DNA from: Chrysoperla carnea
Lineage: Eukaryota; Arthropoda; Insecta; Neuroptera; Chrysopidae
DNA length: 64,000 bases
Direction of reading: 5' to 3'
Assembly (NCBI RefSeq): GCF_905475395.1
Contig: NC_058338.1
Span: forward strand, 71,187,435-71,251,434
A model generated the notes under the pieces. That model was not told the origin of the DNA. It did no database searches and saw only the letters and a list, made by a program, of their open reading frames with translations. Made by a program: the position numbers and the translations under genes. Numbering within the stretch: position 1 is the stretch's first letter; each line of letters opens with the position of its first letter. Below are positions 1,958 through 28,499 of the stretch, piece after piece.

Positions 1958-4911
1958 ATGGCTGCAATCTCAAGTGTTATTGTTTCTGCGAAAAATGGCA
2001 TGGATACAAATCCTGCAGGGAATAAAAAACGTATGAAAAAAGATACAATACGAGAAACTACCCCTACAAAAATTGCGATAACTCGACGTAATGCCAGAGA
2101 ACGAAATCGTGTTAAACAAGTGAATAATGGTTTTCTTACGTTACGACAACATATTCCAACGGATATTGCTGCAGCTTACGAAAATGGTCGTAGCAATAAT
2201 AAGAAATTAAGTAAAGTAGAAACTTTACGAATGGCAGTTGAATATATACGAAGTTTAAAAGAAATTCTGTCAAGGGATCATCATTTAGAAGATAATGATT
2301 TGGGTCCAACAGATGCATCCGTTACATATCAGCAATATGTGTTGATTCCTGGAACCGATACTTATCGATTAACTAACACATTCGATTATGAAGATGAAGA
2401 AAATATTAAACCGGTTATTACTGATGCTGTTGAATTACCATTAAATGAGAAAGGATTGGACGATAGTATACTTTATTCAAATGTGGGATCCCCTTATAGT
2501 CAAAAAAGTAGTGTTTGTTCACCTGGTTATGGAGCAGATGGAATGGTAAATATTATTAATACAGTCAAAGTAGTTGAGTTTATGTTAGTTTGAGACTAAT
2601 AGATAACTTCTGAATGATTATTGCAGAAGATTTTGCTTTTAATTATTTAGGAATCTATTACGAAGTTAACTTACGGTTAAAACGATCATCTAGTGATATT
2701 TGATATATCGCAAATTAAAGTAGCAAAATTTTGATTCATTCAGAAAAACGATAACTTCAATCACTATTCTTACGCTGCTGCTATTATCAAATATGCTTTT
2801 TCTACGTAGCATCTATTTGGTAACACTCAAAATTTTTTACATTTCCGATTAAACCGGAAATCGACAAAACTTTAGTTTTTAAGAGGATATGATACCAAAA
2901 AACATTGCCATCTGTTGACTTTTACGTCATATATGTGTAAAATCAACAGATGGCATTGACATCAGAGTGTTTATCAGTCAATTTTTTCAAATTTTACATT
3001 TGCTTTTCACATTTCCATGACGATTGTCGATAAATAATAATAAAAAAACACCCCAATGCAATACGATTTTTTAAACCCGACTATCTTTTGATAATATATT
3101 TTCGAAATAAAATTGGTATGAATCGATGACGTGTTTTCGAAAATACAAAAGTGCGTTGTCATTCATAATTTCGATCAATATTATCCAAGTAATTAATAAA
3201 AATCAATAATTGCGTTACTTGGCAATTAGATAATCAAGAATGCAGTTTCGCAGACGGCATTACACGCACCCGTGACAATAAAAGATGTCATTATCTCGGA
3301 AATATATAAATTTAAAAAAAATAAATCGAATTCAAAAAATCGTACAGCACCTGTACCCAATAATTTTGCAAAAGGCATTGGAATGCGCCGTTCATGCGCA
3401 ATTATTTTAATTATGTAACAATAAATATTTTTTTAAGGGTGCTCGGGTCACGGGAATGTTTTCCACTATTATAGCAAAGTAATCGCTTGAGTTTTAAATA
3501 ATCTATATATATATATAAAAAGAGAGTGTTTGTTTGTATGTCCCCGATTTTCCCTAAAACTAACCATTGACCTTCGGTAGGGGATTATGTCATTGGGTAG
3601 CCCTTAGGCTCCCATTGTGAATAAGGGAGTTTGGTGGGGGTGGAATTAAAAATGATCTAGGAATTCATAGAAAATAGATTAAAAAAATAGTTCTAATAAT
3701 TTTCAATAGATGGCGCCACTGCCAATAGTACAATTTTCACTAGATGGCGCTACTGGCGCAAATGTCTTTCGATTTTTTAGTTTTAATAATTTTCAATAGA
3801 TGGCGCTACTGGCGCAAATGTCTTTCGATTTTTCTCGAAAATTCTGGAATGTTCTATGGATTTCTATCGAATTTTCTAGAACTTTCTCGAATATTCTCGA
3901 ATGTTGTATGGATTTTTATTGAATTTTATCAAACTTTCTCGAACAATCTGGAATGTTCCATGGGTTTCTGTCGAATTTTCTAGAATTTTCTCGAACATTC
4001 TGGAATGTTATATGGATTTCTATCGAATTTTCTAGAATTTTCTCGAACATTCTGGAATGTTCTATGGATTTCTATCGAATTTTCTAGAACTTTCTCGAAT
4101 ATTCTGGAATGTTCCATGGGTTTCTATCAATCTTTCCCTTACTTTTCCGTACACACAGAGAGTGTAGACATAATATTGGGATCGGCCAAAAAAATCTTAC
4201 TGTTCCGTACACACAGAGAGAATTAAAAAAAAAGTCTTTCATTTAACAATTTTGATATTTAAATGTGCAAAAACAACCCAGCGAAGCGGGTTTAACAGCT
4301 AGTACCTGTATAAATTTAAATCAACTAATTCAACTATCAACCCGCATTAATTTAGAGTTTCTTTGAAGTAAATTATTCCGAACACGATGTTAAATAGAGG
4401 AGAACAATGGAGATAGTTAACTATTATTTTGACGTCCTATTATTTTAAAAGGATGGAAGCTGTAGAAAATTACTTTAACTTAATATCGTTCACAACAATT
4501 TTTTTTTTTATATAAAATCCCAATTTTCCTCCACAAGAGGATATTTTTGCTGGACTAAAAATGAATAAACTTTTTCAGATGCTGCCACCCATTGAAGTAC
4601 TGTATCCACGTTCTGTTATTCAAAATAATCTTACAATACAACCTGCGACATTACCATTAAATCAATCGCTAAACATTAACAACAGTTTTGAATCCAATTT
4701 GACATTATTTCATCATCAAACGTCTGAAGTTTCTTCGCTATCAAATTCATCAGTAAATTCTTGTGACAGTGACTTTATCAAATCAGAAACATTATCTGAT
4801 GACCATACAGATTTTAATTTTAGGTATAGTGATGTTAAAACGGAAGAAGAAACAATTGATGTGATGGATTGGTGGGAAAATCATTCTAAGCTCTCGATAA
4901 TTCAGAGCTAG
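1958..4911 (+). CDS. ase: Achaete-scute family bHLH factor, asense type (2 exons, 306 aa)
   Basis: Exons 1958-2545 and 4579-4911 are joined in phase 0 (donor ATG|GTAAAT, acceptor TTTTTCAG). The product is a proneural transcription factor that binds E-boxes as a heterodimer with Daughterless-type partners in neural precursors. Residues about 42-104 form the bHLH: the basic region [17 protein letters not shown], then a helix with [25 protein letters not shown] is typical of asense; the other achaete-scute proteins usually have KVDTLR. The C-terminus carries the acidic/aromatic tail expected of the family (MDWWEN, close to the end). The start ATG sits in CAAAATGG. Reading on past the donor would replace the family C-terminus with an unrelated tail, which supports splicing. 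Drosophila achaete-scute genes lack introns, so this 2 kb intron is notable. A polyadenylation signal AATAAA lies at about 4969. Confidence 0.8.
2906..2955. repeat. Hairpin with an E-box in each arm, in the asense intron
   Basis: Two near-complementary arms of about 20 bases (TGCCATCTGTTGA on the left, TCAACAGATGGCA on the right) surround a short loop. Each arm holds the E-box CATCTG/CAGATG. It lies 360 bases downstream of the first exon. It may be a regulatory site or the core of a small foldback element. Confidence 0.6.
3502..4302 (+). mobile_element. Non-autonomous Helitron with both ends
   Basis: The left end is TCTATATATATA after an A. The right end has a short GC hairpin (AACCCAGCGAAGCGGGTT) about 8 bases before CTAG, followed by T. 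These are the classic Helitron ends with A|T insertion. The body has no Rep-helicase. It carries tandem repeats: a unit containing AGATGGCGCTACTGGCGC and, from 3840, a 52-bp minisatellite. It lies entirely within the asense intron, on the gene's strand. Confidence 0.8.
3840..4125. repeat. 52-bp minisatellite inside the Helitron
   Basis: About five and a half copies of a unit beginning GAATGTTCTATGG start near 3846, 3899, 3951, 4003, 4055 and 4107, a steady 52-53 base period. Because 52 is not a multiple of three, the open frames seen across it (3744-4226) are repeat artefacts and not a gene. Confidence 0.85.
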
Positions 4912-26061: not shown

Positions 26062-27868
26062 TATACTAGCGGACCCGACAGACGTTGTCCTGTACACACG
26101 TCTTTTTTTAATGAGCTGAAACAATCTGGACGTAACTACAATTCATTAATACCTATACTACATTTAGCCTGTCTGCTACACTCATCCCGCTAAACCCCAA
26201 TTTAACTCCCATTTATTGGACCGGCCTGAGCTTCGACCTTTGGCCTGGCCTTCGGCAGTGGAGCTCGCTGCGCTCGCATATGGCTCTATTAAATGCCTAT
26301 TGACAATAAAAAATACATAGTACACATAGTAAGTTGTAATATAATGTGATATGATTTATATGCGCTCCCACCATTTAATGAAATTTCATTTTTTTGGTAC
26401 GGAGCCCTCAAAAACAGTTGTACTGGACCAAATTGTAAATCTAAACCATCCTCGAATCCCCTTGAACTTATGAAGACTTCACTTGAACCTTCTCCTGAAA
26501 GACGCGCAAGAAATAATAAATCAAACTCAAAGTTAAGAATTTATTAATCGAATGAATGTTTATACAATTTATGTCGTTATGGTAAATGCATCGTCACAGC
26601 CTTCCTCGTCTATTAATTATAATTGAATAATTAATAGCCAACGGAAAGATGCGTCCGCTACATCTACTCCCCCCCAAAAAAAGAAAAAAATCTAAAGATA
26701 GTGAGATAACTTTGAAAAAACAAAAAAAATCTGCATTAAAAAAAAAAAAACGGACCAAAAACAATTTTAGAATTGGAAAAAAAAATTTTTTAATCTAATT
26801 TGGAAGAAAATAGAGACATTTTAACTTAGGTGAATTATTGGTTTGAATTAAAAAATGATTGATATTTAAAAGAAATATCACAAAATTTTGAAACAATATA
26901 TTATTTTCCACTACAATATTTAACAAAATAAATAAATAATAATAAATGAAATTAACTATCCAAATAGTATGCTGGTTTGAGTCGATCTATACTAATAGAA
27001 GTTGGTTTGTTGTTGAAATATTGTAGTGGAAAATAATATATTGTTTCAAAATTTTGTGATATTTCTTTTAAATATCAATCATTTTTTAATTCAAACCAAT
27101 ATATTATTTTTCATTTTCTTTAATTGTTCAATTTTTCATTTTATCATTAATTTTTTTTTTCCCTGGCCAAAAACAATAATTATCAATAATTACATTTTCT
27201 TTTCTTATTCACCTAAGTTAAAATGTCTCTATTTTCTTCCAAATTAGATTAAAAAATTTTTTTTTCCAATTCTAAAATTGTTTTTGGTCCGTTTTTTTTT
27301 TTTAATGCAGATTTTTTTTGTTTTTTCAAAGTTATCTCACTATCTTTAGATTTTTTTCTTTTTTTGGGGGGGAGTAGATGTAGCGGACGCATCTTTCCGT
27401 TGGCTATTAATTATTCAATTATAATTAATAGACGAGGAAGGCTGTGACGATGCATTTACCATAACGACATAAATTGTATAAACATTCATTCGATTAATAA
27501 ATTCTTAACTTTGAGTTTGATTTATTATTTCTTGCGCGTCTTTCAGGAGAAGGTTCGATTCCCGGTATCGGAACCAAAATATGAAGACTTCACTTGAACC
27601 TTCTCCTGAAAGACGCGCAAGAAATAATAAATCAAACTCAAAGTTAAGAATTTATTAATCGAATGAATGTTTATACAATTTATGTCGTTATGGTAAATGC
27701 ATCGTCACAGCCTTCCTCGTCTATTAATTATAATTGAATAATTAATAGCCAACGGAAAGATGCGTCCGCTACAAACTCACACAAAAAATTTCATCAAAAT
27801 CGGTCCAGCCGTCTAGGAGGAGTTCAGTCACGTACACACGCACACAAGAAATATATATATTAAGATGA
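26062..27868. repeat. Interspersed repeat split by the LTR-type insertion
   Basis: The left part (26062-26464) starts CTAGCGGACCCGACAGACG. The right part (27778-27868) contains AAAATCGGTCCAGCCGTC and ends in a TATATA run. Removing the inserted element and one copy of AACT rejoins them as CTTGAACTCACAC. The class is unassigned. Confidence 0.6.
26469..27773 (-). mobile_element. Short LTR-type element (TRIM-like) with an extra inverted LTR
   Basis: Two terminal repeats of 194 bp (26469-26662 and 27580-27773) read as identical, and AACT flanks the whole on both sides (26465-26468, 27774-27777), a 4-bp duplication as in Ty3/gypsy-type integration. On the minus strand the first repeat is followed after three bases by a tRNA-Glu-like primer site (TGGTTCCGATACCGGG, within 27552-27576), and a purine tract (GGGGGGGAGTAGA) precedes the last. 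A third, partial LTR lies inverted at 27379-27556, making much of the element a hairpin. There is no coding capacity, so it must have moved with help from a related element. Identical ends imply a very young insertion. Confidence 0.8.
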
Positions 27869-28499
27869 AAATTGTTTTTCAGGGTATTTTTTATTAAGAA
27901 ATAAATAATTTTCATACAGGTTTTTATAACTCAAAAACTCAACGGTCAAAATTAACCTAAAGTTATATCAAATTCTGAAATAAAAAAGTTTTTTGTGCTT
28001 TTCTTGATGAGGTGTGTATTCCTTTAGAAAACTGAAAATAATCGGCAAAATTTTTGTAGGTCCAATTTTAATAGAAATAATTTTCTAGAGTAACGTTGAC
28101 GAAAAAACGAAAAAATCGAGCACTTTTTTTTATTAGACGTGAAGTTTACGAATTTTGCTCGAAATTTATTACGAAGAGCGATATCTCGTATCCATTTCAG
28201 ATAATATTTCAGAAACTTTCGTTCAATCGCGATTAAATTATTAAATAACATTAATTGTTTTAATATTTGCATGTATGATTCATAATAAAAATAATAATAT
28301 GTAATTAAAATATTACAATATAATGAATGATTATAAAAGCCTGGAAATGGTCCGCTCAAAATAATGCTTTTTGTGTGAATTTATTCAAAGGCAAAAAAAA
28401 ACTAAACAAAAGGGAAGGTTTCGGCACCCAGTTTAAGACCCGGCCTACTAACGCACAGTCTCAAAACTGCTAGCTTTGCGTTAATTATCGCTATGTATA

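What the first reader, a model, noticed from the sequence alone, without database searches (positions are those of the whole stretch)
26469..27773. LTR-type element with a third, inverted LTR fused to its tRNA-primer site
A standard short LTR element has LTR-primer site-body-purine tract-LTR. Here the primer site is followed within about 25 bases by an inverted LTR (27379-27556) and an inverted copy of the body, so the element is a large hairpin with LTRs at both ends and a third inside. At the junction, the tRNA-like sequence and the inverted LTR share GGTTC, and the tRNA match runs to 25 bases, beyond the usual 18. I infer that reverse transcription ran into the tRNA primer and then switched template at GGTTC to an LTR on the other strand. 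The two terminal LTRs look identical and the AACT duplication is exact, so the rearranged form itself appears to have integrated, recently. It would transcribe as long double-stranded RNA.
Basis: partly seen in the sequence, partly recalled or inferred. Interest (0 to 1): 0.75.

Follow-up and report, generated by a model that had tools for sequence, protein, structure and literature searches.

The report
Retrotransposon that copied its tRNA primer
A recently inserted lacewing retrotransposon is a giant hairpin, probably made when reverse transcription overran into its tRNA primer and jumped strands, and dozens of places in the same genome carry the same kind of overrun.

Summary
In detail: identical 194-bp LTRs, exact AACT duplication, a 25-nt tRNA match, and a third, inverted LTR (178/178) fused to it at GGTTC, followed by an inverted body. 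Flanks joined with one AACT match all 40 scored places, 25 at 100% over full length: a clean empty site.

Of 53 loci read, 51 fall in three LTR families; all carry tRNA-Glu complement of 25-73 nt, past the usual 18. Of 16 family-A LTR hits with a primer side, 13 are overrun, 3 have a normal leader. One insertion is an LTR plus 55-56 nt of tRNA, as its empty site shows: integrated strong-stop DNA. Three other inverted-LTR joins exist (L009, L062, L096); L009 and L062 have two U3 ends inside exact 4-bp duplications.

Best explanation: plus-strand strong-stop DNA overran the primer and switched by GAACC/GGTTC onto a cDNA that had itself turned back. The hairpin was found once. Double-stranded RNA is predicted, not shown.

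The parts
26465..26468 (.). target-site duplication AACT, left copy
   Evidence: joined flanks with a single AACT match 40 of 40 scored places, 25 at 100% over the full query
26469..26662 (-). 3' LTR (element sense is the minus strand), 194 bp
   Evidence: 194/194 identical to 27580-27773
26663..26675 (-). polypurine tract GGGGGGGAGTAGA just before the 3' LTR
   Evidence: sequence; the same tract, with 7 or 8 G, precedes the LTR in L010, L011, L012, L013, L017, L019, L020, L022, L023, L025, L026
26663..27016 (-). sense body arm (3' end of the parent's interior), lacking 105 nt between 26835 and 26836
   Evidence: the stretch is spanned in 8 other copies (L011, L012, L013, L017, L022, L023, L025, L026)
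27007..27016 (.). turn point; 10-column overlap, 8 matches; lies at a hairpin-forming spot of the normal body
   Evidence: of 21 places matching the turn query only the window matches in full
27017..27378 (+). inverted body arm, including the 105 nt (27102-27206) and an inverted polypurine tract (27366-27378)
27379..27556 (+). third LTR, inverted, positions 1-178 of 194
   Evidence: 178/178
27552..27556 (+). GGTTC shared by the LTR and the tRNA: switch point
27552..27576 (+). 25 nt of tRNA-Glu 3' end incl. CCA (primer site read on the minus strand); its first 5 nt are ambiguous with the LTR
27580..27773 (-). 5' LTR, 194 bp
27774..27777 (.). target-site duplication AACT, right copy

Best explanation
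A Ty3/gypsy-type element primed by tRNA-Glu was reverse transcribed wrongly. (1) Supported by the family, inferred for this copy: plus-strand strong-stop DNA did not halt at the end of the 18-nt primer site but ran on into the tRNA. (2) Inferred: a cDNA strand halted at a hairpin-forming spot in the body, turned back on a short imperfect match and copied the complementary strand, giving body and LTR in inverted order. (3) Inferred from the junction: the overrun 3' end (..GAACC) paired with GGTTC in the U5 of that molecule and extended through it. (4) Shown: an insertion with proper outer LTR ends and an exact 4-bp duplication; found once; young, judging by identical LTRs and arms. Snap-back within one molecule and a switch to a second molecule cannot be told apart here; L096 (C LTR joined to an inverted A LTR) shows that switches between molecules occur.
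For: Overrun recurs: tRNA-Glu complement of 25-73 nt at the 53 loci read (34 loci holding all 35 exact 25-mers, and 19 others); 51 of them in LTR families A, B or C, which BLAST does not align to each other. Of the 42 family-A LTR hits, 16 have a primer side: 13 overrun, 3 with a normal leader. L035: its empty site shows LTR + TTT + 55-56 nt tRNA inserted alone. 15 of the 53 loci have an exact 4-bp duplication round the composite. Isoacceptors: 4 of 4 informative GGTACC copies read as CUC, 3 of them securely, as gene-like places without CCA do; GATACC copies read 13 UUC, 5 CUC. Inverted joins at L009 (AGTT both sides), L062 (AGTC both sides), L096. L096 repeats the window's plan in small: tRNA, inverted LTR, turn at an internal inverted repeat, direct LTR. 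Found once.
Against: Only two tRNA bases past 18 are unambiguous in the window itself. The sense arm lacks 105 nt that the inverted arm has, with no microhomology, so simple self-copying needs an extra deletion or a second template. The match at the turn is imperfect, 8 of 10 columns. Steps 2 and 3 rest on junctions alone. For 38 of the 53 loci no 4-bp duplication was found, and L035 has none.
Confidence: 0.77

Rival explanations
1. The long tRNA complement is an inherited part of a master element (an extended primer site), and the varied junctions are later template switches or deletions within it, not fresh overruns.
For: L011, a 4.7-kb element with gag, RT and integrase reading frames, carries 54 nt of tRNA complement, so overrun sites can sit in long elements. 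Some loci may be descendants rather than new events; no tree of tRNA segments was made.
Against: The normal leader (L024, L114, L014) has a bulged primer site TGGTTCC[T/A]GATACCG and no tRNA match beyond it. Three LTR families that do not align carry it. UUC and CUC isoacceptor sequences both occur, each in all three families. End points cluster at 40-43 nt (22 of 54 copies) and 52-56 nt (14 of 54), windows chosen after looking.
Confidence: 0.13
2. The element inserted as an ordinary short element and the inverted arm arose afterwards by chromosomal rearrangement or gene conversion.
For: Palindromes do arise by rearrangement (general knowledge); the 105-nt deletion could be a later event. The empty site alone does not date the inversion.
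Against: The GGTTC junction lies where an overrun strong-stop DNA would end; three further inverted joins with different tRNA lengths exist, two of them with two U3 ends inside 4-bp duplications, which is hard to get other than by integration of the inverted form.
Confidence: 0.07
3. Assembly artefact: a fold-back read or misjoin produced the inverted arm.
For: Fold-back artefacts are a known hazard of long-read sequencing (general knowledge). Raw reads were not available.
Against: The genome paper reports PacBio long reads and a contig N50 of 67.8 Mb (passages). A fold-back would mirror flanks as well; here three LTRs, a turn with a spacer of about 80 nt and a 4-bp duplication are present, and L009 is an independent case.
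Confidence: 0.03

Closest known systems
Primer tRNA over-extension in HIV-1 plus-strand strong-stop synthesis (PMC13191261, a review; passages read)
   Same: Plus-strand synthesis runs past A58 of the primer tRNA when m1A58 is missing; minor stops further inside the tRNA are reported in vitro
   Different: There it is seen in vitro or in mutant cells, and products running to the anticodon or the tRNA end are called inactive; here overrun copies are fixed as insertions, up to 73 of 75 nt (L057)
Retrotransposon cDNA captured at chromosome breaks in yeast (PMC10802722, preprint; passages read)
   Same: Incomplete cDNA intermediates enter the genome, as L035 without target duplication may have done
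   Different: 15 of 53 lacewing loci have exact 4-bp duplications round the composite, which points to integrase in those; in the other 38 the limits were not resolved or show none
Strong-stop-DNA hypothesis for the origin of tRNA-derived SINEs (Ohshima, Okada and colleagues, 1993; recalled, not read)
   Same: Predicts joined tRNA and LTR sequence from strong-stop DNA
   Different: None of these composites was shown to amplify
TRIM-type short non-autonomous LTR elements (recalled)
   Same: Short, non-coding, LTR, primer site, polypurine tract, target duplication
   Different: Third inverted LTR, hairpin interior, found once

Membership tests
Ty3/gypsy-type LTR retrotransposon (non-autonomous derivative) | Direct LTRs with short exact target duplication | tested here: met
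Ty3/gypsy-type LTR retrotransposon (non-autonomous derivative) | tRNA primer site after the 5' LTR and polypurine tract before the 3' LTR | tested here: met
Ty3/gypsy-type LTR retrotransposon (non-autonomous derivative) | Relative with RT and RNase H followed by integrase (order recalled as Ty3/gypsy) | tested here: met
   L011: RVT_1 and RT_RNaseH, then H2C2 and rve in the next frame; no RT tree was made
TRIM | Short non-coding element repeated in many copies in this form | tested here: not met
   turn and junction each found once (searches give lower bounds)
Foldback / inverted-repeat DNA transposon | Terminal inverted repeats at both outer ends | tested here: not met
   outer ends are direct LTRs
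tRNA-derived SINE | Pol III A and B boxes of a tRNA head, amplified family | tested here: not met
   only the 3' 25 nt of the tRNA here, so no A-box region; found once

The most novel reading that the evidence does not exclude
In green lacewings the stop at m1A58 of the primer tRNA fails as a rule for tRNA-Glu-primed LTR elements, so plus-strand strong-stop DNA regularly copies most of the tRNA; integrase and repair then fix a whole class of LTR-tRNA composites (strong-stop insertions, two-U3-end palindromes, hairpins, between-family chimeras). This would be a natural record of the strong-stop route once proposed for making tRNA-headed retroposons.
Probability: 0.45. Interest if true: 0.78.

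Novelty: new variant of a known kind. Interest (0 to 1): 0.62.

Why it matters
Primer overrun is known from retrovirus biochemistry, where far overruns are described as inactive (PMC13191261, passages). Here its products make up 13 of the 16 primer-side LTR hits of one family and sit in the germline, so the length at which the enzyme stopped in the tRNA can be read from the genome, and the fate of failed second-strand transfer (microhomology jumps, snap-back, two-U3-end integration) becomes countable. It also gives a concrete place to test the strong-stop idea for how tRNA-derived retroposons begin. The hairpin itself is a candidate source of long double-stranded RNA against its own family.

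Tried and rejected
An early reading that the turn rests on a perfect 10-nt inverted repeat was wrong: direct alignment gives 8 of 10 columns. L039 was first taken as tRNA joined to an inverted B LTR; BLAST gave no hit and it was dropped. L071 has a 19-nt inverted B hit, but that LTR end is itself near-palindromic, so it was not counted as an inverted join. L035 was first read as having an ATGC duplication; its empty site shows none, and one extra T or two missing bases. Simple self-copying of one strand was considered and does not explain the 105-nt deletion. L009 has no empty site elsewhere (only its own two flanks). L052 has a boundary 4-mer (AACT) but no matching copy after its LTR end.

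So it is untested whether overrun is special to tRNA-Glu.

Papers: strong-stop DNA with SINE origin: 0 papers; 98 papers, 15 listed, of which two were opened (PMC3747384, which has no 'strong stop' passage; PMC13191261). Searches that showed no report of LTR-tRNA composites or inverted-LTR joins like these: as listings only; passages were read in PMC13191261, PMC10802722, PMC10116181, PMC3747384 and PMC10085805. This is not proof of absence in print.

Full report
Where it is. The window is contig C2:71187435-71251434 of its own genome, 559,487,470 bases in 337 contigs. Contig lengths 139.98, 100.74, 77.48 and 76.43 Mb and the count of 337 agree with Chrysoperla carnea inChrCarn1.1 (PMC10116181, passages); contig 3 (94.12 against 94.41 Mb) and contig 6 (38.56 against 38.62 Mb) differ slightly.

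The element. LTRs 26469-26662 and 27580-27773 are 194/194 identical and flanked by AACT. Element sense is the minus strand: 5' LTR, TTT, 25 nt complementary to tRNA-Glu, inverted LTR (178/178), inverted polypurine tract and body, a turn at 27007-27016, sense body, polypurine tract, 3' LTR. The arms differ by no substitution over about 436 aligned columns, by one A in an A-run and by 105 nt missing from the sense arm. Flanks joined with one AACT match 40 of 40 scored places (1,383 candidates): 25 at 100% over the full 143-nt query, one at 100% from base 2, 14 at 99%. The insertion is exact and hit a high-copy repeat. As one RNA strand it is predicted to form a long duplex.

Copies. The turn query (91 nt) matched 21 places; only the window matched in full, the others stop at the turn or before. 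The junction query (62 nt) matched 37 places; only the window and C2:74235202 cover the inverted side. So this hairpin was found once, and L009/L030 at C2:74235 is a second join. The tool warns that its counts are lower bounds.

The family. One search gave 42 LTR hits (174 candidates, 40 scored). I placed all 42: 13 LTRs followed by tRNA complement longer than 18 nt; 3 with a normal leader (L024, L114, L014); 14 3' LTRs next to the polypurine tract; 9 solo LTRs, 8 with exact 4-bp duplications; 2 inverted LTRs; 1 partial. For nine of the 14 3' LTRs no 5' partner is among the 42 hits; I did not look further. The normal primer site is TGGTTCC[T/A]GATACCGAAAG, a bulged fit to tRNA-Glu. A long copy, L011, has reading frames with reverse transcriptase, RNase H and integrase domains.

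Overrun of the primer. The 25-mer with CCA occurs at 128 places with up to 2 mismatches, 35 exactly (reversed-pattern control 0); the 32-mer at 166 with up to 3 (control 0). These counts include tRNA genes without CCA. I read all 35 exact places (34 loci) and 19 more loci. All 53 have tRNA-Glu complement of 25-73 nt; the search demanded about 25, so shorter sites are unseen here. 51 of the 53 were assigned by BLAST to one of three LTR families that do not align to one another, A 194, B 196, C 192 bp (some only over part of the LTR); L050 and L076 were not assigned. Ends fall at 40-43 nt in 22 of 54 copies and at 52-56 nt in 14 of 54 (L089 has two copies). Against a uniform spread over 25-75 the windows, chosen after looking, give p about 3e-11 and 6e-4. 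By counting they correspond to tRNA nucleotides 33-36 (anticodon) and 20-24 (D arm). Modified bases there (recalled for tRNA-Glu; PMC13191261 reports a minor stop in the anticodon loop of tRNA-Lys) could explain them.

What follows the tRNA differs from locus to locus by eye: an LTR end and target duplication (L040 AACT, L045 TACC, L057 ACCT, L089 CTAT, L055 AACT, L058 ATAT, L071 TTAC), an LTR end of another family (L032, ATAT; L060, AGAG), family body (L036, L092, L069), gag (L041) or pol (L031/L012); for many loci it is unidentified. In 40 copies with a readable 5' boundary, 10 copies (9 loci; L089 counts twice) have an LTR end plus the same 4-mer within 320 nt; with duplications permuted among copies the mean is 0.62 and the maximum 5 in 5,000. 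The other 30 copies showed none within that distance. Counting also the elements whose far end was found otherwise (window, L009, L062 and, with a whole 3' LTR, L011 CTGT, L012 GATA, L013 AGCC), 15 of 53 loci have an exact 4-bp duplication; 38 do not or were not resolved.

Strong-stop insertion. L035 is one LTR, TTT and 55-56 nt of tRNA. All 40 scored places (1,134 candidates) matched its joined flanks over the full query at 97%, with two bases more; aligned with one of them, the interrupted repeat shows no duplication. Three other LTR-tRNA loci end at 54-56 nt with nothing recognisable after (L034, L037, L038), but their empty sites were not sought.

Inverted joins, 4 of 53 loci. Window: tRNA 25, GAACC shared. 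L009: AGTT, LTR, tRNA 28, inverted LTR, AGTT; both LTRs share two variants absent from the window's LTR and differ once in 178. L062: AGTC, B LTR (first base changed), tRNA 46, 19 nt, inverted first 58 nt of B at 86%, AGTC. L096: C LTR, tRNA 55, inverted A LTR from TCCT, a turn at an internal inverted repeat of the A LTR, direct A LTR, then unassigned sequence; no matching duplication was seen in the stretch read. L009 and L062 thus carry U3 ends on both sides. L011 holds a 34-nt inverted piece of leader after its tRNA stretch (by eye; the hit there lies on the opposite strand).

Fresh tRNA or inherited? Gene-like places come as UUC with GGTATC, and CUC with GGTATC or GGTACC; none of the 13 places at 0-1 mismatches pairs UUC with GGTACC (letters shown for 48 of 67 places; only L087 was confirmed as a gene by ARAGORN). 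Among element copies long enough to tell, 4 of 4 with GGTACC read as CUC (L041 rests on bases at its junction); with GATACC, 13 read as UUC and 5 as CUC, of which L089 and L091 are again at a junction. One further copy with another base there (L102) reads CUC. Both kinds occur in all three families. This fits repeated copying of cellular tRNAs; numbers are small.

The turn. The normal body has a hairpin-forming palindrome (TTTGTTGTTG ACGT CAACAACAAA in L026); the window's sense arm begins inside it, and the other side joins about 80 nt away on an 8-of-10 match. A strand that halted there and re-paired would give this turn. Whether it copied itself or a second molecule is open; the 105-nt difference favours a second molecule or a later deletion.

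Judgement. The larger result is that overrun of the tRNA primer, described elsewhere as a dead end, is the state of 13 of the 16 primer-side LTR hits of this family found here. On checking, the share of loci with a proven duplication is 15 of 53, less than I first wrote; I lowered confidence from 0.78 to 0.77 and raised the first rival from 0.12 to 0.13.

Noticed in passing
window 1958-2593: Open frame of 211 aa with a helix-loop-helix domain (PF00010, E 8e-19), achaete-scute-like by eye.
   Followed up: partly
window 26400-26464 and 27778-27870: The element sits in a very homogeneous high-copy repeat (1,383 first-look candidates; 25 of 40 scored places identical over the full query).
   Followed up: partly
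L089:1-601: Two tRNA-Glu complements in tandem (40 and 41 nt) between an A-type LTR and an LTR end, with CTAT duplication.
   Followed up: partly
L060, L032, L096, L069: Chimeras between LTR families (C with B end, A with B end, C with inverted A, C with A body), suggesting that different RNAs meet in one particle.
   Followed up: partly
L012:1033-3042: LTR end and tRNA stretch happen to read in frame into the RT-integrase frame.
   Followed up: no
G000, 14 places: tRNA-Gly 3' ends followed by CCA exist too (11 of 14 places), mostly an ACGATGC variant; not read, so it is unknown whether other primers are overrun.
   Followed up: no
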